Source: Saprospiraceae bacterium
GTDB lineage: Bacteria > Bacteroidota > Bacteroidia > Chitinophagales > Saprospiraceae
NCBI GenBank assembly: GCA_017996375.1
Contig: JAGOHC010000005.1
Location: forward strand, 1 to 52,533
Reading direction: 5' to 3'
Length of the DNA stretch: 52,533 bases
This document shows, in pieces, positions 30,927 to 52,533 of the stretch (positions are counted from its first letter, which is position 1; each line of letters begins with the position of its first letter). The position numbers were made by a program, and so were the translations under genes. The notes under the pieces were generated by a model. That model had not been told where the DNA came from and searched no databases. It saw only the letters and a program-made list of their open reading frames with translations.

Positions 30927-32222
30927 TTACCCTGTCGCCTTATTTAGGTTATGGAAAATTCTTTGTAAGAGATTATACTCCTGCGTATAGATTGCAGCCA
31001 CCCCTTTCATCCTTTGTCTTTGTGGTAATACTTTACCTTGAGAAGTTTTTAGTACTTGAGGCAAACTAATAGTCACTAAATATGAACCATTATTGGGGAT
31101 TATTGAATAATCTTTAACCTTTCCTTCAATAGAGCCAAACTGAGCGGTTGGGTAATTTTCTATATCAATTATTACCTTTTGCCCAACGTTAAGACTACCC
31201 GAAGATTTTAGATTTAGATTACCAAAAGCAATTAAACTTGCTTGCACATCAGGTATAAGGACAAAAAGTATTTCGTCTGTTTTTGCAAATTGATTATAAC
31301 TATTTATCTTATTAAACGAGACAATCCCATCAACAGGAGATCTGTACACAAATTGCGCTTCCCATGCCTGATATTTTGCTTCAATTTGATCAATTATTTG
31401 TTGGATATCAAATATTCTTGATAATATGCCTTTTGCTCTATCTTCTTTCAATTCATTAATTTGGGTGTATAGTTGCTGTACCTTAATATCGTTATTAATT
31501 CGGCTAGCCGTAAAGTTTTCTGCCTGCCTTAATTCTTGTAATAATCTTGCTTGTGATTTTTCTTTGTCCACTTCCGAAATAAGGCTATCTTGCTGAAGTT
31601 TCTTGCTACGAGTATAATCTTTTTCAACCAAATCAACTTCGTCCGTGTAGTACTTTTGCTGGATTTTTATAGAATGATTTAGTTTTTCGGTATAAACAAT
31701 TTCATTTTCTATGGCGTTGATTTTTTTAAAAACGTAATATTGTCGTAAATAACTTTGAAACTCACTAAATAACTGCCTTAGATTTGCATAATCTGACGAT
31801 AGTTCTCCAAGTTTAAGCGATTCAGGAAGTTTAAGCGATAAGTAATCTTTAGTAGCTCGTATGGATTCAAAATCGTAAAAGAAACGATTGAGTAAATCCC
31901 AATCTTTTGGGTTTGTAGTTGAACTAAACTGTAATACGATTTCGCCTTTCTTTGCGTATTGTTTATCAGTTATATAGATGCTATCTATTGTTCCACTAAT
32001 TTTCGATAATATCTCCACAGGAGGGCTTTCTGAAACAATTTCTATATCCAATACTAACTTATCTGGATACCTGACAAATGAAGCAACAGCTATACAAGCG
32101 AGTAAAAATAAAAATATGGCAAATATTCCCCACCGGACAAGCCAATTGGGTGGATTGCCAAAAATATTTTCTATTACTAATTCCACATTTTTATTATCAG
32201 GTGGTTCGTTTTTATTAGGCAT
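30927..32222 (-). CDS. HlyD-family membrane fusion protein of the RiPP exporter
   Basis: 431 residues. A short cytoplasmic N-terminus and one membrane helix (~30-50, FAIFLFLLACIAVASFV) come first. A biotinyl-lipoyl-like half (SKISGTIDSIYITDKQYAKKGEIVLQ) follows, then a long coiled-coil hairpin (~105-290, Lys/Glu/Gln-rich) and the return half (YRSPVDGIVSFNKIN). A beta-barrel domain closes the chain. It spans the periplasm and couples the ABC exporter to an outer-membrane channel, probably TolC-like and encoded elsewhere. Its start overlaps the end of the C39-ABC gene by 8 bases, so the two are translationally linked. It is the last gene of the grasp-with-SPASM operon. Confidence 0.88.
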   Translation of the reverse strand: MPNKNEPPDNKNVELVIENIFGNPPNWLVRWGIFAIFLFLLACIAVASFVRYPDKLVLDIEIVSESPPVEILSKISGTIDSIYITDKQYAKKGEIVLQFSSTTNPKDWDLLNRFFYDFESIRATKDYLSLKLPESLKLGELSSDYANLRQLFSEFQSYLRQYYVFKKINAIENEIVYTEKLNHSIKIQQKYYTDEVDLVEKDYTRSKKLQQDSLISEVDKEKSQARLLQELRQAENFTASRINNDIKVQQLYTQINELKEDRAKGILSRIFDIQQIIDQIEAKYQAWEAQFVYRSPVDGIVSFNKINSYNQFAKTDEILFVLIPDVQASLIAFGNLNLKSSGSLNVGQKVIIDIENYPTAQFGSIEGKVKDYSIIPNNGSYLVTISLPQVLKTSQGKVLPQRQRMKGVAAIYTQEYNLLQRIFHNLNKATG

Positions 32223-34419
32223 ATGCAGATGTTTCTAAATCTAATTGGTTTTTTACCAAATTATAATAAAGATTCCGTTGTTTTACTAAGGAAATATGAG
32301 TTCCAACCTCTGCTACCTCTCCATTATTTAAGACAATTATTTGGTCTGCGTTTTTTACCGTACTTAGTCTGTGCGCCACTATCACAACTGTTTTAGACGA
32401 GAAGAAAGTATTAAGGTTATCCATGATTATACGCTCATTCGTTGTATCTAACGCATTAGTTGCCTCGTCAAAAAAGAGAAAATCGGGATTCTTATATACG
32501 GCTCTTGCGATGAGCAAGCGTTGCTTTTGCCCTTGCGATAATCCGTTGCCCTTAGCACCAATCTTGGTATTGTACGATAGCGGAAGTCCATAAACATAAT
32601 CTGCGATATTAGCCATTCTTAATGCATAATCTAATTGGTCTAATCGGATTGTATCATCACTCTCTGCAATATTCGCAGCTATTGTATCTGAAAAAATAAA
32701 ACCCTCTTGCATAACTGTACCGCATTTGGTGCGCCAAAAAGGTTTATCTATTGCGTTGAGAGGGATATTTCCCACAGTAATAATCCCTTCTGTGGGTGGG
32801 TAAAAACCCAATAACAACTTTAGCAAGGTTGTTTTCCCACTACCACTCGTGCCAACTATTGCAGTAGTTTTTCCGTGCGGAATAGTGATGTTAATATTCT
32901 GCAATACAAGACCTCCTATGCTATTATATCGAAAACTTATATTGTTCAGTACTATATCTGCTTGTTCCGGCAACTGTAATATCAGTTGATTGTTACTATC
33001 GGACTCGGGTTTAATATCTGTTATCTCAGCCATCCGATTAAGGCTTATTTTTGCATCTTGCGCTGCTCTGATAAATTGTATAAACTGGTCAAAAGGAGCA
33101 TTTAGTTGTGCCACAATATATTGTATAGCGACAAGTGTACCGAGTGTGATTTTTCCCTCAATAACAGCTTTTGCAGCAATAAACGAGATGATAATATCTT
33201 TGAGTCTATTAAAAAATAATGCACCGAAATCTTGATACTGCCGTAGTGCAAGAGATTTAGATTGTATTCTGAAAAGGATTGCTTGTATATTTAACCATTG
33301 CCATCGGCGTTTCATTTCGCTGCCTTGCAATTTTATTTCTTGCATACCGTGTATCATCTCATATAAGGTTTGATTATTATCAGATGCCTGTTGAAATGAT
33401 AGATAATCTAAATCTGCTCGTTTCTTTAGAAATAACATTTCCCATAGCACATATAATAATGAAAAACAAAAAAACACTACGAAAATAGTGATGTCGTACA
33501 TTAGTAACAAAGCACTAAAGGTAATCAATGTGAGTACGGAGAAAAATATATTCAGAACAGAACCGGTAAGAAACTGTTCTACACGCTGGTTATCCCCGAT
33601 GCGTTGCATCAAATCACCTACATTTTTACTATCGAAGAACCCTAAGGGCAATCGCATTAATCGGAGAAGAAAATCGGCAATTAAATGAACGTTTACGCGC
33701 TTACCTATTTGGAGTAATATCCAAGATTGAATGAATTGTACAAAGGTTTGCGTGATGAATAATACCAACTGTGCAAGAAGTATCAGCCATACAAAAGGCA
33801 GATTTTGGTTCTGTACACCAACATCTATGAGTGATTGAGTTAAGAATGGAAACAACAGTTGGAACACCAGCCCCGCTAATATTCCAATAAAAAATTGGAT
33901 TATCAAGCGATTATAAGGGCGTACATATCCTACAAGATAGTGCCAATTATTTATAGTTTGGCTGCTTTCTTGCGTATTATGAAACGAGGGTGTAGGCTCT
34001 AAACCCAATGCAATACCTTTATCATCATCGCTGCACCACGATTGCTCGAATTGTGCCACTGTTAGTTTGATAAGATCGAAAGCGGGATCGGCTATACGAA
34101 CGACCCCCTTTTTTATGCTATATACCACCACAAAATGGCGTTGCTCCCAATGAATGATACAAGGAAGTGGAAACTGCTCAAGACCCGCTTCACCGTTGAG
34201 TGTACGAAAGCGAACTTTAACGGCTATGGTTCTAAACCCAAGCCCTTCGGCTGCTATTGCAATACCCTTCATGGATACACCCATGCGCGATACTTGGCAG
34301 GCTTCACGCAGGTATTGTAACGACAGCACCTTGCCGTGCCACGCACACACCATTTTGAGGCAGGCAGCACCACAATCCATCTCATCTAACTGACGTGTAA
34401 ATGGAAAACCGCGAAGCAT
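32215..34419 (-). CDS. C39 peptidase-containing ABC transporter (PCAT) for double-glycine leader peptides
   Basis: 734 residues. The N-terminal C39 cysteine peptidase has its triad: Cys16 (LDEMDCGAACL), His95 (QRHFVVVY) and Asp111 (IADPAFD). The membrane domain spans ~165-450 with about six helices. The nucleotide-binding domain shows Walker A GTSGSGKTTLL, signature LSQGQKQRLL, Walker B FLFFDEATNALD and the H-loop in VAHRLST. Such proteins cleave leaders after GG and export the core. The likely substrate is the peptide encoded at 37786-38031, whose leader ends in LYGG. It lies 12 bases downstream of gwsS and overlaps the HlyD gene. Confidence 0.93.
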   Translation of the reverse strand: MLRGFPFTRQLDEMDCGAACLKMVCAWHGKVLSLQYLREACQVSRMGVSMKGIAIAAEGLGFRTIAVKVRFRTLNGEAGLEQFPLPCIIHWEQRHFVVVYSIKKGVVRIADPAFDLIKLTVAQFEQSWCSDDDKGIALGLEPTPSFHNTQESSQTINNWHYLVGYVRPYNRLIIQFFIGILAGLVFQLLFPFLTQSLIDVGVQNQNLPFVWLILLAQLVLFITQTFVQFIQSWILLQIGKRVNVHLIADFLLRLMRLPLGFFDSKNVGDLMQRIGDNQRVEQFLTGSVLNIFFSVLTLITFSALLLMYDITIFVVFFCFSLLYVLWEMLFLKKRADLDYLSFQQASDNNQTLYEMIHGMQEIKLQGSEMKRRWQWLNIQAILFRIQSKSLALRQYQDFGALFFNRLKDIIISFIAAKAVIEGKITLGTLVAIQYIVAQLNAPFDQFIQFIRAAQDAKISLNRMAEITDIKPESDSNNQLILQLPEQADIVLNNISFRYNSIGGLVLQNINITIPHGKTTAIVGTSGSGKTTLLKLLLGFYPPTEGIITVGNIPLNAIDKPFWRTKCGTVMQEGFIFSDTIAANIAESDDTIRLDQLDYALRMANIADYVYGLPLSYNTKIGAKGNGLSQGQKQRLLIARAVYKNPDFLFFDEATNALDTTNERIIMDNLNTFFSSKTVVIVAHRLSTVKNADQIIVLNNGEVAEVGTHISLVKQRNLYYNLVKNQLDLETSAYA

Positions 34420-34431
34420 TTATATGGTCAG

Positions 34432-35514
34432 CTAATTATTAGGTAAGATAATATCAGATAGTTCATAGTATTGTATAGCTTTTTGCTTAAGGGGATTATT
34501 GCTATAGTCTTCCCAAGTGCCTGTATAAGGGTCATATCCACACTTAAGCGGAGCAGAATATATATTATCCGGCTCATCAAGATATGCACGACAGTCTGTA
34601 CAAATATGCCGAAACTCACAGTCTTTGCACTTTATTATATCATCTTTTTTAATATTCCAGAATTTTGTAAAAGCCGTTTGTTTTATTACATCTGCCAGTT
34701 GCACATCTTTAATATGTCCAAAATGATGCGACATACTAGGGCAGTTTTTAATATAACCATCTTTATCAACACTAATTTTGCGATTTAAACAGGTATTATA
34801 CTGCTGAGATTCAGTGAAGGTTTGTATGTTTACTGAAAAGTATGACTCATCAATTACGCCACAATTTTTTTCGCTAATAGTATTCTTACTATAGAATATT
34901 GGACATTCGACACTATTGTGCGAAATATATTTATCGGGAGCAGCATATACTATAATCCTATCTATACGCTTGTATTTATCTACTAAATCTTGCAACAGTA
35001 TATGTTCATTTTCTATCTGATACCTCAATATTATTTCAATGTTTTCAATGATATTATCTTCCAACCCATTTAATACTTGTTCAATAAATTGTAGAGAGAT
35101 ATTATTAAAACATCTAATTTGAAACGCTTTACATCGCACTATATTCATTTGCGCTACTGTACGCAAAACAATATCCTCGTCCCCACCAAAATCAATTATT
35201 ATATTTGTAATATCATAGGGAGTTTCCCAATCTAACGATAACTTAGGAAAAGATTCCGGATGGTTATCAAAGAAGACGAGCTCATTGTCAGCTAAAAACC
35301 TATAGTATTCATCTATTATATCGTCGTAATTATTCTCATAGAAAGACTTTATATATTCTATACTTTTGCCCTGATGCTTTTCTAAGATTTCATACATGGC
35401 GTTAGGAATATTCATTGCCTCCTGACGTTGAACATCGCAAAGCAGCGACTTTGTATGCCCCTTTACGGGAATACAGCAGGAAAAGAGTATAAAAGGTTGC
35501 TTTTCATCAATCAT
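34432..35514 (-). CDS. gwsS: Grasp-with-SPASM system SPASM-domain peptide maturase
   Basis: 360 residues. The N-terminus (FSCCIPVKGHTKSLLCDVQRQ...IPNAMYEIL) has the wording I associate with the gws SPASM maturase family. The C-terminus has a SPASM-type cysteine set: C242-x10-G-x4-C258, C296-x2-C299-x5-C305-x2-C308 and C325, enough to bind auxiliary Fe-S clusters. The canonical radical-SAM CxxxCxxC motif is absent, so a classical SAM-cleaving cluster is unlikely and its chemistry is unknown. It may bind or present the precursor, or transfer electrons. It starts with an ATGA overlap on a degraded small gene, downstream of gwsG and 12 bases before the exporter gene. Confidence 0.85.
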   Translation of the reverse strand: MIDEKQPFILFSCCIPVKGHTKSLLCDVQRQEAMNIPNAMYEILEKHQGKSIEYIKSFYENNYDDIIDEYYRFLADNELVFFDNHPESFPKLSLDWETPYDITNIIIDFGGDEDIVLRTVAQMNIVRCKAFQIRCFNNISLQFIEQVLNGLEDNIIENIEIILRYQIENEHILLQDLVDKYKRIDRIIVYAAPDKYISHNSVECPIFYSKNTISEKNCGVIDESYFSVNIQTFTESQQYNTCLNRKISVDKDGYIKNCPSMSHHFGHIKDVQLADVIKQTAFTKFWNIKKDDIIKCKDCEFRHICTDCRAYLDEPDNIYSAPLKCGYDPYTGTWEDYSNNPLKQKAIQYYELSDIILPNN

Positions 35515-35779
35515 AATTTGCCAAGTTTACTGATTGGTTTATTAAATCTAGTTGCTTGATAAGAGGTTGTTTGATAAACTGTTATTTTTATAAATCTTGG
35601 CTCAACAATTTTTGTAGAACCTTCTACTGCATATTCAACTATAACGTTATTTTAAAACGCATAACTTAAAGGTAATTTCTCAAGATCTTCTTTGCTAAAA
35701 TAAGTATTCATATAAGGTTTTTTTATAAGAAAAGAAATTCTTTTTCCGTACGAGTACCTGAATGTATAACTTTGATCAT
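35511..35779 (-). pseudogene. Degraded small gene between gwsG and gwsS
   Basis: One frame stays protein-like from just after the gwsG stop to a TGA that overlaps the gwsS ATG (ATGA). It reads DQSYTFRYSYGKRISFLIKK, then PYMNTYFSKEDLEKLPLSYA-F. An in-frame TAA (35652-35654) comes next, followed by NNVIVEYAVEGSTKIVEP and RFIKITVYQTTSYQ to ...KLGKL. No in-frame start codon exists near the front. The ATG at 35779 is one frame off, as if a base had been lost just after it. Thus an ~88-residue protein appears to have lost its start and gained a premature stop. The intact stop/start coupling with gwsS suggests the loss is recent. A sequencing error is the alternative. No family was recognised. Confidence 0.6.
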
Positions 35780-35782
35780 AAT

Positions 35783-36745
35783 TTAATTATTGAAATATTG
35801 TGCGATGTGTTTTTCTATAAAATAATTACAATTATGAGAAAGCCAACCAAATTGCCCCAAGTGATTGACTTCAAGAAATACTAAATCATTTTCGGGTGTT
35901 ACAATTATATCAATAGAACCTGTATCCATTCCAATTTTTTGTATAAAATTAAGCACTTTTGTATTGTGTTCTTTAGATAGAATATACGGCACATTTCTAT
36001 TCGGCTTGATATTATCATAGTTCCGGTAGTCAATCATTGTCTTATCATTTCGCTGAGAAAATATCGCCATAGGGAAAAGTTTATCTTGCAGAAAGAAAAT
36101 CCTCAACTCAAGTTTCTTTTTTACGTAGCGTTGCACCAAAAAAGGACAACAGAGGATACCTTCTTCAACATCTTCTCCTCCCATATTTACCATCTCAGTA
36201 CATGAAGCATAATGTCTATTATTGATTGTAAGGGAGTATAAATTATCAATCGCTTTTGTGATAAACTCCGACTCTGTTGCCAACAAATTAGCAGTTCTTT
36301 TATCAGATAAAACATAGGTATCGGGAATACGCAACCCTACTGATCTCGCCACATCCAAACTTTGCAATTTCAAATGGTCTCTCTCCTTGGATAAGTTTCC
36401 TAAATGTTTTTTTAAAAGCAACTGGTAGTAAATAAACTCCTTTAATTTATGCCATTCTCTCTTGAGCGTATTTATTACGGCGTATTGACTAATACTGAGT
36501 ACGGGTGTTACAATTTGCAAATCGCCACGCCTATACCAAAATGACTCGAAATGACTGAGGTCATAATTTTCATTTCCTTGCCCGTTTAGCACTATCCGAA
36601 TACCTTCATTGGTGTTCATTATAATGTTGACACCCAGCAAATCATCTTCTCCGTTTATTCTCCTAAAGGGCGTTTTGTAATGTAATAACCATTTTATAAC
36701 GGCACTTGTAGAGTGATCTGTTTTATTACTTAAAATGAGCAACAT
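35783..36745 (-). CDS. gwsG: Grasp-with-SPASM system ATP-grasp peptide maturase
   Basis: 320 residues. The N-terminus (MLLILSNKTDHSTSAVIKWL, then SFWYRRGD) is typical of RiPP ATP-grasp ligases of the graspetide class. The ATP-grasp fold shows the lysine-bearing strand EFITKAID, the hinge VQRYVKKKLELRIFF and the metal-binding end block SIDIIVTPENDLVFLEVNHLGQFGWL, with the Asp, Glu and Asn expected for Mg-ATP. Enzymes of this kind join Asp/Glu side chains to Ser/Thr (esters) or Lys (amides) of a precursor. The probable substrate is the peptide at 37786-38031. It starts 3 bases after the lipoprotein stop, so it is part of the operon. Confidence 0.88.
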   Translation of the reverse strand: MLLILSNKTDHSTSAVIKWLLHYKTPFRRINGEDDLLGVNIIMNTNEGIRIVLNGQGNENYDLSHFESFWYRRGDLQIVTPVLSISQYAVINTLKREWHKLKEFIYYQLLLKKHLGNLSKERDHLKLQSLDVARSVGLRIPDTYVLSDKRTANLLATESEFITKAIDNLYSLTINNRHYASCTEMVNMGGEDVEEGILCCPFLVQRYVKKKLELRIFFLQDKLFPMAIFSQRNDKTMIDYRNYDNIKPNRNVPYILSKEHNTKVLNFIQKIGMDTGSIDIIVTPENDLVFLEVNHLGQFGWLSHNCNYFIEKHIAQYFNN

Positions 36746-36748
36746 TTT

Positions 36749-37702
36749 TCACCAATTTAACTTAACCAAATATTTAGCAATATTTTCTTCGGGGAGTTCT
36801 GAATAAGTATCCACCAGGCAGTTTAACCGATAACCACTATTAGTATTTTTTAAAGCGTATGCTGTTTTTCGGAGTTGGTCGTCAATGCTATGAAAGCCTA
36901 TTTTTTTTCGCAAGGCATTGATTTCTTGTTCCTGTTTAGCTGAAAGCTTAGTGCGATAGAGTTGATTATCAATGCGTACTACCAGCGAAAAAGCATAGGG
37001 GCGTTTGTCATCGAATAAGTCATAATAATCAGCAAATTCATGGGGTGCCAGGTGTTGCTCTCGGAGAAAGATTAAGAGTTTTTTATCTAAATTTTCAAGC
37101 TTCTCCATGGCAAAATGGGTAAATAAAATATTTTCCGGTGGCACAAAGTAACCCAACATATTAGGCGTGCATTGCAAACCAATTTTTGTTGCTGAGGGAT
37201 AGCCTTGTTGTTCATAATAGTGCAAAAAATCTACATAGTTTTCCTGAGTCGTTTTGTGTTTAAGTTCTCTTATATGTTGCTGATGAGCTAATTGGTCTTT
37301 ATCATGTAGTTTGTTTATCTTTTCTTTATACCCAAAGTCAATGGTAGCCGTAGTGTTGCGAAGCTCGGTTGTAAGATCTGCATTATCACGGAACATTTCC
37401 AAGCGCGTAAAAAACTCCAAACACAAACCACGTTTACGCAATGCCTTAGCATTTTGAAGGGAAAAAGCGGTATCGCGAAGCGATACCGAAAGTTTTAGAG
37501 CATTATAGTAGTCATCCGCCCACCCGTCAGCGAGCGAAAAAGCCTTCTTGTAATGGCGCAATGCTTGTTGGTTATCATCGGCAACGATAGCCAATTCTGC
37601 CTTATTGATTTCGGCGTAATATCGCAGGTTTTTTTTAGGCATTAACCTGCTTGAACAGGCTACAGACGTAAGACAAACTAATAAGGCAATTAAATTTTTC
37701 AT
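36749..37702 (-). CDS. RiPP-locus lipoprotein, helical, TPR-like
   Basis: 317 residues from ATG 37702 (MKNLIALLVCLTSVACSSR); longer frames lack a signal. The lipobox VAC places the acylated cysteine at residue 17, so the protein is anchored in the envelope. Residues ~25-110 resemble TPR helices (ADDNQQALRHYKKAFSLADG). The rest is charged and mostly helical with no known domain. It sits between the precursor gene and gwsG and is almost certainly co-transcribed with gwsG (3-base gap). It could be a receptor, an immunity factor or a partner for the exported peptide; none of these is shown by sequence. Confidence 0.75.
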   Translation of the reverse strand: MKNLIALLVCLTSVACSSRLMPKKNLRYYAEINKAELAIVADDNQQALRHYKKAFSLADGWADDYYNALKLSVSLRDTAFSLQNAKALRKRGLCLEFFTRLEMFRDNADLTTELRNTTATIDFGYKEKINKLHDKDQLAHQQHIRELKHKTTQENYVDFLHYYEQQGYPSATKIGLQCTPNMLGYFVPPENILFTHFAMEKLENLDKKLLIFLREQHLAPHEFADYYDLFDDKRPYAFSLVVRIDNQLYRTKLSAKQEQEINALRKKIGFHSIDDQLRKTAYALKNTNSGYRLNCLVDTYSELPEENIAKYLVKLNW

Positions 37703-37729
37703 GATAATATTGAAATATATTTGAAAAGT

Positions 37730-37762
37730 GCCGATAGGGGTGAGCATTAACGCCCTATCGGC
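37730..37762 (-). terminator. Intercistronic hairpin after the precursor gene
   Basis: A perfect 10-bp stem (GCCGATAGGG / CCCTATCGGC) with a 13-base loop lies 23 bases after the precursor stop and before the lipoprotein gene. Only a weak U-tract (ACTTTTC) follows on the minus strand. It fits a partial terminator or mRNA stabiliser giving more precursor than enzyme. Confidence 0.6.
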
Positions 37763-37785
37763 TTATTTGTTATGTAACAGTAAAA

Positions 37786-38031
37786 TTAACTGTGGGCAGT
37801 CTGCGAACCTGCTGTGGTCATCTTGTTATAATCCGTACCATTCCGTGAACCGTCAGCATTATACACTTCAGAATCCGAAGAGTAAGTAAAACCAAAACTT
37901 GTAGTACCGCCACCAGTGGCACACTCACATCCACCATTGGGTACTTCCGAAGGTGCACCACCGTAAAGGCTACCGGAGTCCTTGATGGCATTTTTTGAAA
38001 AAGCATCTAATTTTAATGATTCAAATTTCAT
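37786..38031 (-). CDS. Grasp-with-SPASM RiPP precursor peptide
   Basis: 81 residues. The leader MKFESLKLDAFSKNAIKDSG has the LKL..FSKNAI pattern typical of Bacteroidota GG-leader precursors and ends in SLYGG (Gly24-Gly25), the expected C39 cleavage site. The 56-residue core begins APSEVPNGGCECATGGG. It has Cys35-x-Cys37, a Gly triplet, aromatics (FGFTYSS), ten Thr and eight Ser in all, and acidic residues (E29, E36, D53, E55, D60, D67) able to form side-chain esters. One lysine (K70) could form an amide link. It is the first gene of the operon, divergent from the XRE regulator. The symbol is left blank because no name is firmly established. Confidence 0.82.
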   Translation of the reverse strand: MKFESLKLDAFSKNAIKDSGSLYGGAPSEVPNGGCECATGGGTTSFGFTYSSDSEVYNADGSRNGTDYNKMTTAGSQTAHS

Positions 38032-38082
38032 GATAAATAAAATATATAGCCATAGAAAACACCTGCATAACGCTGCAAGCTA

Positions 38083-38139
38083 TTCCGTCCGTGTCGTTTT
38101 GGGTGGTGTTGCGCTACGCCACACATGGAAGGGACGGAA
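38083..38139 (-). promoter_or_regulatory. Predicted leader hairpin upstream of the precursor gene
   Basis: TTCCGTCC (38083-38090) and GGACGGAA (38132-38139) are exact complements. They enclose a second imperfect stem, GTGTTGCG (38106-38113) / CGCCACAC (38117-38124), with one mismatch. If transcribed with the precursor gene, it gives a bipartite stem ~50 bases before the ATG, which may stabilise or regulate the message. Confidence 0.5.
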
Positions 38140-38156
38140 GTTCCGAAATGCAATTA

Positions 38157-38175
38157 ATTACACCACAAGTGTAAT
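38157..38175. promoter_or_regulatory. Perfect inverted repeat, candidate XRE operator
   Basis: ATTACAC-CACAA-GTGTAAT is a perfect 7-bp inverted repeat with a 5-base spacer, between the precursor gene and the divergent regulator gene. On the minus strand it overlaps TACACTTG, one base off the TAnnTTTG -7 consensus. This is the expected geometry for an HTH dimer controlling the RiPP operon. Confidence 0.5.
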
Positions 38176-38227
38176 AATAATAAAAAAAAATCCTAATTGT
38201 GACAATAAAAATATTTGCATTTTGCGT

Positions 38228-38235
38228 TATGTTTG
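38228..38235 (+). promoter_or_regulatory. Candidate -7 element for the XRE regulator gene
   Basis: TATGTTTG matches TAnnTTTG 32 bases before the ATG at 38268. A TTTG at 38214-38217 is too close to be a normal -33 box. Confidence 0.45.
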
Positions 38236-38267
38236 TTGTGTATTTCACCATTATATAAAAATATCCT

Positions 38268-38582
38268 ATGAAAATCAACCAATTAACTGCTATTCGTATC
38301 AAAGTGTTACGTATCCAATTAGGCTTTTCCGCAGAGGTAGTTGCAGCTGAACTCAAAATAGATAAAAGCAATTATAGTAGGCTCGAAAATGGAAAAGTAG
38401 AAATCACCATTACGCGATTAACACATATTGCACAGGTATTAAAAGTGCCTGTGGTTGATCTGTTACCCTACCAAGATATTCAGCAATCAAATAATATAAA
38501 TGCAGACCCTGCTTTGAAACAAACCCTATACTCCGCTATATCTATACTTGAGGTAGCTTTGCAAAAAATAAATAACCAGTGA
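38268..38582 (+). CDS. XRE-family helix-turn-helix regulator, divergent to the RiPP operon
   Basis: 104 residues. A Cro/CI-type HTH spans ~5-62 (IKVLRIQLGFSAEVVAAELKI, then DKSNYSRLENGKVEITITRL and THIAQVLKVPVVDLL). A short helical tail that may dimerise follows. It lacks other domains. The gene diverges from the precursor gene across 236 bases that contain a perfect inverted repeat, so local control of the RiPP operon is likely, probably with autoregulation. It ends at a bidirectional terminator shared with the beta-helix lipoprotein gene. Confidence 0.88.
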   Translation: MKINQLTAIRIKVLRIQLGFSAEVVAAELKIDKSNYSRLENGKVEITITRLTHIAQVLKVPVVDLLPYQDIQQSNNINADPALKQTLYSAISILEVALQKINNQ

Positions 38583-49715: not shown

Positions 49716-50126
49716 TTACAATGGACGATAGTCACATTTCCTATAATTGATTGATTTTAGCGTATCATTGCTAAACACAAATTGAAGGCACATTAATTCC
49801 TTCTGTTCCGCATCATATTTGCTTTGATATTCAATCATATTCTCCAAAATTATACCCCTTTCGCCAAATAATTTTAATACGTCTGACTTGCTTTTTTTGC
49901 CGATTAAACAGCTTTTAAAATCAGTTGTAATTTCGGTGCAAAACAAGTCATTACGCTTATAAACTACAGGAAAATATTTGCCAAAACCTTCAAGGATTAT
50001 CCAATGCTTATCAATGGCTGTTTGTAGTTTTTTATCACATTCATTACTTGTTTGAGTACGAATACTGTTACAACCAATGGATAACAAAACAGCGAATGTT
50101 ATATTACCAAGTATGAATGTTTTCAT
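49716..50126 (-). CDS. Small lipoprotein, paralogue A
   Basis: 136 residues. The lipobox LSIGC places the acylated Cys at 19. The mature part has the pattern shared with its two neighbours: an early Cys (NECDKKL), a helix with Trp (IDKHWIILE), a Cys in DLFCTEI, a CL motif (SCLIGKK) and SDVLKLFGERG. No known domain was recognised. It is preceded by a 57-base repeat that also precedes paralogue B, with the same 3-base gap to the ATG, so the unit repeat-plus-gene was duplicated. It is the last gene before the terminator at 49657-49699. Confidence 0.75.
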   Translation of the reverse strand: MKTFILGNITFAVLLSIGCNSIRTQTSNECDKKLQTAIDKHWIILEGFGKYFPVVYKRNDLFCTEITTDFKSCLIGKKSKSDVLKLFGERGIILENMIEYQSKYDAEQKELMCLQFVFSNDTLKSINYRKCDYRPL

Positions 50127-50129
50127 AAT

Positions 50130-50186
50130 TTGATTATTTTGTACGTACCCAAAATTGGCTTGCTACAGGGATATTTGCAGCAAGCC
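50130..50186 (-). repeat. 57-base repeat R1 with hairpin, upstream of paralogue A
   Basis: It shares 51 of 57 bases with 50679-50735. It contains the stem GGCTTGCT / AGCAAGCC. On the minus strand the hairpin follows the end of paralogue B and precedes a conserved stretch just before paralogue A. Confidence 0.8.
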
Positions 50187-50204
50187 ATAAATCAACATAT
50201 TTTT

Positions 50205-50675
50205 TTAATCAATACGTACTTGAGGGTATGCACAGGTTGTATATAAACTGCTATCAACGCTTCCGTTCGTGTTATTTATTTTAAATATAAGACACAAAGT
50301 GTTTGAAATCGTTAAGGTATCTATACATTGATAATAAAGATAGGTATTTACTTGTTCAACTTTATCAAATGTGTAGTCACCAAATAAAGTTACGACATCA
50401 TTTTTCGCTAAATTATTTTTGATGCAATCTTTATAAATATTGCCTACTCGCTCACAAAACGCATCATTTTTTTGATAATTCGACATACTCGGATTGAGTA
50501 TTTTTTTGTTTACTAATGTATGCCAATTTTTTGTAATATCATCTTTTAAAACTCCGATGCAACTATCTTGTATATCAACGCTTTTATTGTTAGCTGCGCC
50601 GCTATGCGGTTTGTAGTGACTGCATGATGAACATAATAACGCTGTAAGTGTGATTGTCAAGGTTAGTTTTGTCAT
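50205..50675 (-). CDS. Small lipoprotein, paralogue B
   Basis: 156 residues. The lipobox LLCSSC places the acylated Cys at 18. The mature part follows the same plan as its neighbours: an early Cys (DSCIGVL), ITKNWHTLVNKK, Cys in DAFCERV, DCIKNN and DVVTLFGDYTF, then a Cys-containing C-terminal beta part (LYYQCIDTLTISNTLCLIF). Sequence identity between copies is low apart from this skeleton, so divergence is old or fast. It is preceded by repeat R2. It probably lies on the outer membrane surface or the periplasmic face; the role is unknown. Confidence 0.75.
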   Translation of the reverse strand: MTKLTLTITLTALLCSSCSHYKPHSGAANNKSVDIQDSCIGVLKDDITKNWHTLVNKKILNPSMSNYQKNDAFCERVGNIYKDCIKNNLAKNDVVTLFGDYTFDKVEQVNTYLYYQCIDTLTISNTLCLIFKINNTNGSVDSSLYTTCAYPQVRID

Positions 50676-50678
50676 AGC

Positions 50679-50735
50679 TTGATTATTTTATACGTACCCA
50701 AAATTGGCTTGCCACAGAGGTATTTGTGGCAAGCC
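50679..50735 (-). repeat. 57-base repeat R2 with hairpin, upstream of paralogue B
   Basis: A near-copy of 50130-50186 with 6 differences. Its stem GGCTTGCCAC / GTGGCAAGCC is 10 bp and perfect. A T-A pair in R1 is C-G here, and a mismatched pair in R1 is restored, showing that the RNA hairpin is kept. Confidence 0.8.
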
Positions 50736-50745
50736 CTGAGTTCAA

Positions 50746-51150
50746 TTATTCCACCATATCTATCATGCCACTTTCTGCATCTTTTACATAATTTTTGTCA
50801 AAATGAATCCTCAAATAACAATAAGGATAGTAATATTTTTTGCTACAATTAGCTTTGAAAATATATTCGAAGATGCCCTCACGTTTTCTATCAGGTTTTC
50901 CGAATAATTGAATAATCTCAATTTTATGTAAGCGAATCAAGCAATCATGGTTAAGTTGTGCTAATGTAATAACTTCGGAGAAATCCTGGTGACACGGATT
51001 TTTTTGATGTTTATACCACTTTTTATTTATCAATTCTACAAGGCTTTTACATTCCGGAATAAAATCTGCTGAATTAGATAAAGGTGGTTGTTGTACAAAC
51101 TGCGATTTGCACGAAAGTGCGATGAAGCACAAAAATAAAATGCGTTTCAT
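50746..51150 (-). CDS. Small lipoprotein, paralogue C
   Basis: 134 residues. A short lipoprotein signal ends in IALSC (Cys14). The mature part has the shared skeleton: PECKSLV, INKKWYKH, Cys in NHDCLIRL, EIIQLFGKPDRKREG, then a Cys- and Tyr-rich beta part (KYYYPYCYLRIHF). The ATG overlaps the protease stop by one base (TAATG), so it is co-transcribed with that gene. No domain was recognised. Linkage of the trio to a secreted metzincin suggests, but does not show, a functional tie such as inhibitor or partner. Confidence 0.75.
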   Translation of the reverse strand: MKRILFLCFIALSCKSQFVQQPPLSNSADFIPECKSLVELINKKWYKHQKNPCHQDFSEVITLAQLNHDCLIRLHKIEIIQLFGKPDRKREGIFEYIFKANCSKKYYYPYCYLRIHFDKNYVKDAESGMIDMVE

Positions 51151-52533
51151 TATAATTTCTCAAACTTTATTTGGTGAAAATTATTGCCTTCTTTTAAAAC
51201 TCCGAAATATATACCTTGATTTAGCATGGATACATTTATTGATATAGATTTTGAATTAGGGAAAGTTTCTAATTGTACTCTTCCTAGTAAATCGAAGATT
51301 TTTATATTCTCAATAATTTTAGAGCTTTCAATAAACAGATTGTTGAATGATGGATTGGGCCAATATTCTATTTGCTTTTTAATATTTAATGCTTCTAAAT
51401 ATGATGAAGTACAATCATCAAGTTGAATCATTGGGTTAATTGTACAATTTGGCTCCGCTATATTACTTATTTGCTTAATGTAATCACCTCCCTCAATATC
51501 GTTTGTATGAGGTGTACGATTAGGTGTTAATACCTCGAAGTACATTATATCATCATTTTGATTGACATGTAATAACAACTGTGCATGTCCCAATTCATGT
51601 AGAGCAAACGATTCAAGATCATGATTGTTTTCCCAGAATGAGAAAGGCAATGTGGGATCGTACTCTTGATTAACATACCAATCTTCAAACTGCCTAAAAT
51701 ATATATCAAACTTTTTTAATGCAAATTTTAATATACTCCCATTTCCATCTAAACATGCAGAGAAATACTCCTTTGTGGTTACTGCTTTTGTACTACTTGG
51801 ATTTCCATCAGGCAATAAATCACTTAGTATTATTTGACAAGCATACTGTTGATAGAAAGGTGCTATATCAGGATAATCTTTTATTTTGAAATTAATATTA
51901 TCTGTTTGTATCCATGTACATAAGGCTCTTTCAAAAGCGGGTACAGCACCGGAAAGGTTTTTAAAATTTTCGCTATAATATAATACGTATCCACTATTAT
52001 CTTCACTAAAATCACCAATTAATCTGACCTTTTTTCTTTTAAGTTCTGATTGTCCAATATCTGCACGTGCACGATTATCAACGGCAAAACGAACATTAAG
52101 GGACTCGCTACTTGTCTTTACAGAATTATTTACAATCTTTACCCTGATTTTTCCAGAACCAGCGTATTCTGTATAAACTCCATCTTTTGCTACGCTAGGT
52201 ACAAATACTTCTATTTTGGTTTCGCTCCAGAAATTATAATCTGTTAGCAAAGGTTGAATCCAGTCGACTCCGTTTACGGTACCTTCAAAAGCATTGGTAA
52301 ATTCAACATATGAGTTTCCTTGGGTAGTGCCAAAACCGGAACCATAAATTGTTAGAAGATCATCCGTTCCTGCTCTCAACGACAACGGTCTAATACTATC
52401 AATCGTCACGGCAAGTTGCTCAAACGGCTTCCACTCACCATCTACGTTGACGGTATCAAAATTCAGGGCAGCGTTGCCGTCCCAATATTGGTTGAGGGAT
52501 AAAATCTCGTTATAGTTAAAAGCAATACCAGGG
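51150..52533 (-). CDS. Secreted metzincin-like metalloprotease with IPT/TIG and T9SS domains (5' end outside window)
   Basis: The frame is open to the right edge, so the N-terminus is missing. Visible order: an IPT/TIG Ig-like domain (LSLRAGTDDLLTIYGSGFGT), then a zinc protease segment with HELGHAQLLLH. The latter is HExxHxxxxxH, like matrixins, but with Leu in place of the usual Gly before the third ligand. A Met-turn candidate DDIMYFEV follows. A ~75-residue type A T9SS sorting domain ends the chain (YWPNPSFNNLFIE ... MLNQGIYFGVL). It is an exported protease or protease-like protein. It is transcribed with the three small lipoproteins. Confidence 0.8.
   Translation of the reverse strand, partial: PGIAFNYNEILSLNQYWDGNAALNFDTVNVDGEWKPFEQLAVTIDSIRPLSLRAGTDDLLTIYGSGFGTTQGNSYVEFTNAFEGTVNGVDWIQPLLTDYNFWSETKIEVFVPSVAKDGVYTEYAGSGKIRVKIVNNSVKTSSESLNVRFAVDNRARADIGQSELKRKKVRLIGDFSEDNSGYVLYYSENFKNLSGAVPAFERALCTWIQTDNINFKIKDYPDIAPFYQQYACQIILSDLLPDGNPSSTKAVTTKEYFSACLDGNGSILKFALKKFDIYFRQFEDWYVNQEYDPTLPFSFWENNHDLESFALHELGHAQLLLHVNQNDDIMYFEVLTPNRTPHTNDIEGGDYIKQISNIAEPNCTINPMIQLDDCTSSYLEALNIKKQIEYWPNPSFNNLFIESSKIIENIKIFDLLGRVQLETFPNSKSISINVSMLNQGIYFGVLKEGNNFHQIKFEKL

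What the first reader, a model, noticed from the sequence alone, without database searches (positions are those of the whole stretch)
30927..38582. Complete grasp-with-SPASM RiPP locus with its own regulator
Precursor with double-Gly leader, lipoprotein, ATP-grasp maturase, SPASM maturase, C39-ABC exporter and HlyD partner lie in one minus-strand set, with a divergent XRE gene. The families are known, but I know of no solved product for the gws branch, so the product and the order of chemistry are open.
Basis: partly seen in the sequence, partly recalled or inferred. Interest (0 to 1): 0.8.

Follow-up and report, generated by a model that had tools for sequence, protein, structure and literature searches.

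The report
Graspetide locus with pseudo-radical-SAM partner
A Bacteroidota gene set predicted to make a cross-linked peptide pairs its predicted cross-linking enzyme with a protein that resembles radical enzymes but lacks their radical-making motif and likely serves as a docking partner; one small conserved gene of the set is cut by a stop codon, so the set may be switched off in this genome.

Summary
The locus is real: both maturases pass the curated gws cut-offs (TIGR04192, TIGR04193). It is not complete.

The main result concerns the "SPASM maturase". None of 113 distinct GwsS has the CX3CX2C motif of radical SAM enzymes. A confident AlphaFold model shows an N-terminal fold like leader-binding RRE domains, a shortened barrel and a SPASM domain. 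In 11 of 113, four of the eight SPASM cysteines are lost as a block, yet the ten of these mapped with long flanks still lie beside a gwsG. All 36 above-cut-off GwsG in 395 genomes have a GwsS match just downstream. GwsS is best read as an obligate leader-docking partner of the ATP-grasp enzyme, not a second chemist.

The precursor's leader is of gws type; its core has no database relative. The lipoprotein joins DUF6624 through relatives. Our paper searches showed no solved gws product.

The parts
37786..38031 (-). gws precursor peptide, 81 aa; leader MKFESLKLDAF...YGG (25 aa), core without database relative, rich in Gly, Thr, Ser, Asp, with two Cys
36749..37702 (-). predicted lipoprotein, 317 aa (lipobox-like VACSS, read by eye), helical model; DUF6624-related through relatives (fits 'cluster 23' of Makarova 2022)
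35783..36745 (-). GwsG, ATP-grasp peptide ligase, 320 aa; the conserved polar positions of the family are kept (K164, Q205, R215, D239, R241, R250, D279, E292, N294)
35511..35711 (-). LPL gene, interrupted: motif LPLSYAF at the N side and FNKPISK at the C side, in-frame TAA at 35654-35652 (codon 20 of 67)
34432..35514 (-). GwsS, 360 aa: RRE-like domain (about 6-90), shortened barrel (about 100-190) without CX3CX2C, SPASM domain with eight Cys (218, 242, 258, 296, 299, 305, 308, 325)
32215..34419 (-). C39 peptidase-ABC exporter, predicted to cut after Gly-Gly and export
30927..32222 (-). HlyD-family periplasmic adaptor
38268..38582 (+). divergent XRE (HTH_3) regulator, 104 aa
38157..38175 (.). 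inverted repeat ATTACAC-5 nt-GTGTAAT between XRE gene and precursor; possible operator, weak

Best explanation
This is a grasp-with-spasm graspetide locus in which the ATP-grasp enzyme GwsG is predicted to cross-link the precursor's core, while GwsS, which has a SPASM domain but no CX3CX2C radical SAM motif, is predicted to be its leader-docking partner and not a radical enzyme. Shown: family membership of GwsG and GwsS, the missing motif in all relatives tested, the RRE-like fold of the GwsS model, pairing of GwsG with GwsS, the gws-type leader, and the stop codon in LPL. Inferred steps: (1) the RRE-like domain of GwsS binds the MKxESLKLxxF-type leader as an added strand. (2) GwsS, with LPL bridging or activating, presents the core to GwsG, which phosphorylates Asp/Glu side chains and joins them to Thr, Ser or Lys side chains (loss of 18 Da per bond). 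(3) The C39-ABC exporter cuts after the leader's Gly-Gly and exports through HlyD and an outer-membrane partner. (4) The DUF6624-type lipoprotein meets the product outside the cytoplasm (retention, processing or self-protection; open). (5) In this genome the LPL stop would lower or abolish product formation if LPL is needed.
Confidence: 0.62

Rival explanations
1. GwsS is a second modifying enzyme: its SPASM clusters (or an unusual SAM site) make thioether or C-C bonds in the core, as Makarova et al. suggest for this branch.
For: SPASM domain with eight conserved Cys in the main class; the core has two Cys; 55 of 94 precursor candidates of relatives hold a Cys; Makarova et al. 2022 (PMC8939145; section 7, part 1 of section 6 and passages seen) call it a radical SAM enzyme and note conserved precursor Cys.
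Against: No CX3CX2C in 113 of 113; shortened barrel; a subclass lacks one whole set of four Cys yet lies in gws loci; 39 of 94 precursor candidates have no Cys.
Confidence: 0.15
2. The LPL stop is an assembly or base-calling error, and the locus is intact and active in the organism.
For: Every other gene is open, the rest of the LPL frame keeps its conserved C-terminal motif, and the genome is a fragmented assembly of 242 contigs.
Against: The precursor is listed on 7 contigs and the lipoprotein on 3, the longest 396 kb against 52.5 kb for the window's contig, yet a read-through LPL query with X at the stop found no protein, as expected if no intact copy was called there; absence of a small called ORF is weak evidence. 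No second LPL in the assembled genome.
Confidence: 0.35
3. The stop is real and the locus is decaying, so it makes no product in this lineage.
For: An internal LPL stop is seen only here among the 108 regions with an LPL match; gwsS fragments and matches with in-frame stops are common in the same-family sample.
Against: All other genes, including the precursor and exporter, are open; LPL may be dispensable.
Confidence: 0.45

Closest known systems
Graspetide branch 5 of Makarova et al. 2022 (PMC8939145) / gws system (TIGR04192 + TIGR04193)
   Same: ATP-grasp, LPL and SPASM genes in that order, with a 'cluster 23' type lipoprotein, C39-ABC/HlyD exporter genes in many loci and very diverse precursors with a GG leader
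   Different: LPL interrupted here; core without database relatives; that paper labels the SPASM protein a radical SAM enzyme, which our motif and fold results do not support
Graspetide group 14 of Carter et al. 2026 (PMC13097080, passages)
   Same: Described there as always co-occurring with a SPASM-domain protein and highly with an NHLM-type transporter
   Different: That group 14 is the gws group is our inference; no group-14 product is described in the passages seen
Rosaritide (MirB plus partner MirC)
   Same: Graspetide synthetase that needs a partner protein; MirC's N-domain weakly resembles an RRE
   Different: MirC is a chaperone/PPIase-type protein, not a SPASM protein
Microviridin ligases MdnB/MdnC
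   Same: ATP-grasp ligase core by sequence
   Different: MdnC reads a PFFARFL helix through Glu191/Asp192/Asn195 (PMC7823629, passages); the aligned GwsG positions are not conserved as such, and a GwsS pairs with GwsG
RiPP radical SAM/SPASM maturases CteB, SuiB, TigE, anSME
   Same: Barrel plus SPASM arrangement; an N-terminal RRE in several (recalled)
   Different: GwsS has no CX3CX2C motif and a shortened barrel

Membership tests
gws graspetide system | ATP-grasp protein above the TIGR04192 cut-off | tested here: met
   267.1 against 230 bits
gws graspetide system | SPASM protein above the TIGR04193 cut-off next to it | tested here: met
   332.9 against 175 bits
gws graspetide system | Precursor with gws-type leader upstream | tested here: met
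   phmmer best E 2e-5 against 94 relatives' precursor candidates, 0 of 100 shuffles as good, but an unrelated window ORF reaches 8.7e-5 with one hit; weaker by leader profile, E 0.057 though first of 457; TIGR04149 cut-off not reached
gws graspetide system | LPL homologue in the gwsG-gwsS slot (a usual companion in branch 5, not part of the two NCBIfam models) | tested here: met
   E 1.5e-11, but the frame is interrupted by TAA
gws graspetide system | Ester/amide cross-linked product | not testable with these tools
   needs mass spectrometry
Radical SAM/SPASM peptide maturase | CX3CX2C motif | tested here: not met
   0 of 113 GwsS, window included
Radical SAM/SPASM peptide maturase | SPASM cysteine pattern | tested here: met
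   TIGR04085 29.0 against 27 bits; eight Cys; Pfam SPASM just below its cut-off, 21.1 against 21.5
RRE domain | PqqD-like winged-helix fold at the N-terminus | tested here: met
RRE domain | Binds the leader | not testable with these tools
   needs a binding assay
DUF6624 (PF20329) / cluster 23 lipoproteins | Pfam match of the window protein itself | tested here: not met
   no PF20329 match
DUF6624 (PF20329) / cluster 23 lipoproteins | Homology through gws relatives | tested here: met
   4 of 10 related proteins hit PF20329; profile-profile Prob 98.2, E 3.1e-14 against an 8-sequence set of which those 4 are half and the other 4 were not scanned
C39 peptidase-containing ABC exporter | C39, membrane and ATPase domains with motifs | tested here: met

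The most novel reading that the evidence does not exclude
Gws systems are split-recognition graspetide synthetases: GwsS is a radical SAM enzyme that has lost its radical, and in one subclass a whole auxiliary cluster, and become the leader clamp, while the tiny LPL protein acts in trans as the switch helix that classical graspetide leaders carry in cis. Recognition, activation and ligation would sit on three polypeptides, which would let precursors diverge almost without limit, as is seen.
Probability: 0.35. Interest if true: 0.8.

Novelty: new variant of a known kind. Interest (0 to 1): 0.58.

Why it matters
The gws branch is the largest of the poorly characterised graspetide groups in Makarova et al. 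2022 (190 loci), and the listings and passages of our paper searches showed no solved product. If GwsS is a docking partner and not a radical enzyme, attempts to reconstitute gws products should include GwsS and LPL with GwsG, need no SAM, and look for -18 Da steps. It would also be a clear case of a radical SAM enzyme fold reused as a peptide-binding scaffold, with cluster loss by steps visible in living relatives.

Tried and rejected
Tried without result: Rfam scan of the window, no hit; tRNA scan, none; sequence search of GwsS against the PDB, nothing at E 0.1 or better; fold search of the lipoprotein model, no match at E 0.001 or better, best is TPR-like PilF at 0.041; RNA fold of the precursor's upstream region, z -1.33, 17 of 200 shuffles fold as well. 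A shared core motif (Y/W-S-S-D-S/T) with a few relatives was seen by eye and dropped: the core alone scores E 0.0093 and 4 of 100 shuffled cores do better. Reading LPL as a second precursor was considered and dropped: the 16 aligned relatives have no conserved GG and no conserved acid residue. MdnC contact positions in GwsG rest on one pairwise alignment and are only suggestive; if LPL were a close mimic of the microviridin leader helix, those positions would be expected to persist, so this counts somewhat against the bold reading. That the LPL motif recalls the graspetide leader motif is an idea of Makarova et al., used here. The lipobox, the names 'AuxI' and 'AuxII' for the two four-Cys sets (recalled from anSME) and the GG cleavage rule are recalled or read by eye, not tested.

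Counts with dropped rows: 457 window ORFs of 30 aa or more in the leader test. The set of 94 precursor candidates was picked by a loose rule from 64 of the 80 named loci and holds some non-precursors (for example what looks like a regulator in L078). For the structure alignment 65 sequences were given of 81 at hand. GwsG conservation used 76 of 81. The 133 GwsS sequences include duplicates; 113 remain at 95% identity. The LPL test of 117 regions used E up to 1; 108 hit, 101 at 1e-3 or better; it counts the window twice (WIN and L001), holds a few duplicated loci, and 55 of the regions trained the profile. Of its 16 flagged rows, 14 have a stop only at the natural C-terminal end. Of its nine misses, seven have a small ORF in the slot, L019 only a longer frame that overlaps gwsG, and in L002 the slot holds the end of what looks like a lipoprotein gene. 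The lipoprotein count (56 of 81 loci, 53 with a member ending near the gwsG start) rests on an iterated profile and includes fragments. L129 was fetched but not mapped, being part of L120. One search left out 16 weak matches and the weakest GwsS fragments.
Full report
WHAT IS THERE. The window carries, on the minus strand, a precursor gene (38031-37786), a lipoprotein gene (37702-36749), gwsG (36745-35783), gwsS (35514-34432), a C39-ABC exporter (34419-32215) and an HlyD gene (32222-30927), with a divergent XRE gene at 38268-38582. The two maturases pass the curated gws cut-offs: TIGR04192 with 267.1 against 230 bits and TIGR04193 with 332.9 against 175. Each has one match in its genome of 2.78 Mb, which is rated 93% complete. 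The G+C of the locus (0.33-0.39) lies under that of most of the window (0.38-0.44). In the class sample 0 of 5 same-family and 0 of 8 same-order genomes had a GwsS match; in a wider family sample 64 of 398 did, 37 of them above the cut-off. So it is patchily held.

Between gwsG and gwsS nearly all relatives have a small gene, typically with an LP-[hydrophobic]-x-[hydrophobic] motif near the start and a FYKPISKI-type end. Makarova et al. 2022 named this the LPL family and placed it always just upstream of the SPASM gene (PMC8939145; passages, part 1 of section 6 and section 7 seen). A profile from 55 relatives, window left out, hits 108 of 117 regions, 101 of them at E 1e-3 or better, the window at 1.5e-11. 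Of the nine misses, seven still have a small ORF in the slot. In the window the frame 35711-35511 has an in-frame TAA at 35654-35652, codon 20 of 67; no other region with a match has an internal stop. A read-through query with X at the stop found no protein in the database, and the genome holds no second LPL match. Either the locus has lost LPL recently, since the remaining frame keeps the KPISK motif, or the assembly has an error.

CLUSTER LOSS BY STEPS. Eight cysteines are conserved in the main class. In 11 of 113 distinct sequences, four of them (218, 242, 258, 308) are gone together and the other four (296, 299, 305, 325) are kept; 101 have all eight and one (L069) has lost a single Cys. 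Such all-or-none loss is what one expects if the four bind one cluster. Ten of the 11 were mapped with long flanks: each lies with a gwsG beside it or one gene away, and 8 of the 10 loci show exporter genes or precursor candidates (L120 and L122 do not within the stretch). L119, L120 and L130 hold an eight-Cys and an AuxI-less module side by side. The eleventh locus mapped, L125, has an eight-Cys GwsS only. A cluster that can be dropped whole is unlikely to be the site of the defining chemistry; that is inference.

PAIRING. Among 395 class genomes, 36 of 36 GwsG above the cut-off have a GwsS match 0-1500 nt downstream on the same strand, some of these GwsS being below their own cut-off. Of the 17 weaker ATP-grasp matches compared, six do; eight of the other eleven are four adjacent pairs, as in microviridin loci (likeness recalled). 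Sixteen matches below 110 bits were left out.

MECHANISM. The most likely scheme is that GwsS holds the leader and GwsG makes the bonds. GwsG resembles the microviridin ligases and keeps the conserved polar positions. The contacts by which MdnC reads its leader helix (Glu191, Asp192, Asn195; PMC7823629, passages) are not conserved as such at the aligned GwsG positions. A partner-dependent graspetide is known: rosaritide needs MirC, whose N-domain weakly resembles an RRE (PMC13097080, passages). The role of LPL is open; an activator in trans is our boldest reading, built on a remark of Makarova et al. that its motif recalls the graspetide leader motif, which branch-5 precursors lack.

PRECURSOR AND LIPOPROTEIN. 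The leader is related to those of other gws precursors (best E 2e-5; 11 of 94 under 0.01; 0 of 100 shuffles as good; one unrelated window ORF reaches 8.7e-5 with a single hit), while the core alone scores 0.0093 and 4 of 100 shuffled cores do better. It has no database relative, so the product cannot be predicted. The lipoprotein family is found in 56 of 81 loci, in 53 with a member ending near the gwsG start, and joins DUF6624 through its relatives; the window protein alone does not match PF20329. Carter et al. [quoted passage not shown] a lipoprotein signal, read by eye here, would place this one outside the cytoplasm.

NOVELTY. The locus is a gws graspetide locus, so a known kind. The reading of GwsS as an RRE-bearing pseudo-radical-SAM partner was not found in print in our searches; these cover open-licence papers only, were judged from listings and passages, and curators may know of the missing motif. 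A 2025 paper on RRE discovery does not hold the words SPASM or graspetide in its main text (word find).

Noticed in passing
L119, L120, L130: Two gws modules side by side, one with an eight-Cys GwsS and one with a GwsS that lacks four of the eight Cys.
   Followed up: partly
same-family genomes, (for example G610, G444, G421): Many short C-terminal gwsS fragments, some with in-frame stops: likely remnants of lost gws loci in this family.
   Followed up: no
window 36745-35783 (GwsG residues 199-200, 295): Two-residue CC insert whose columns are gaps in 74 and 73 of 76 aligned sequences, and His at a position where 72 of 76 have Pro.
   Followed up: no
window 38157-38175: Inverted repeat ATTACAC-5 nt-GTGTAAT between the XRE gene and the precursor; a possible operator, but 18 inverted pairs were listed in that stretch.
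   Followed up: partly
L034, L088, L083, L076, L078: XRE homologues upstream of gwsG on the opposite strand, as in the window.
   Followed up: no
window 50001-52000: G+C falls to 0.31 near the right end of the window.
   Followed up: no
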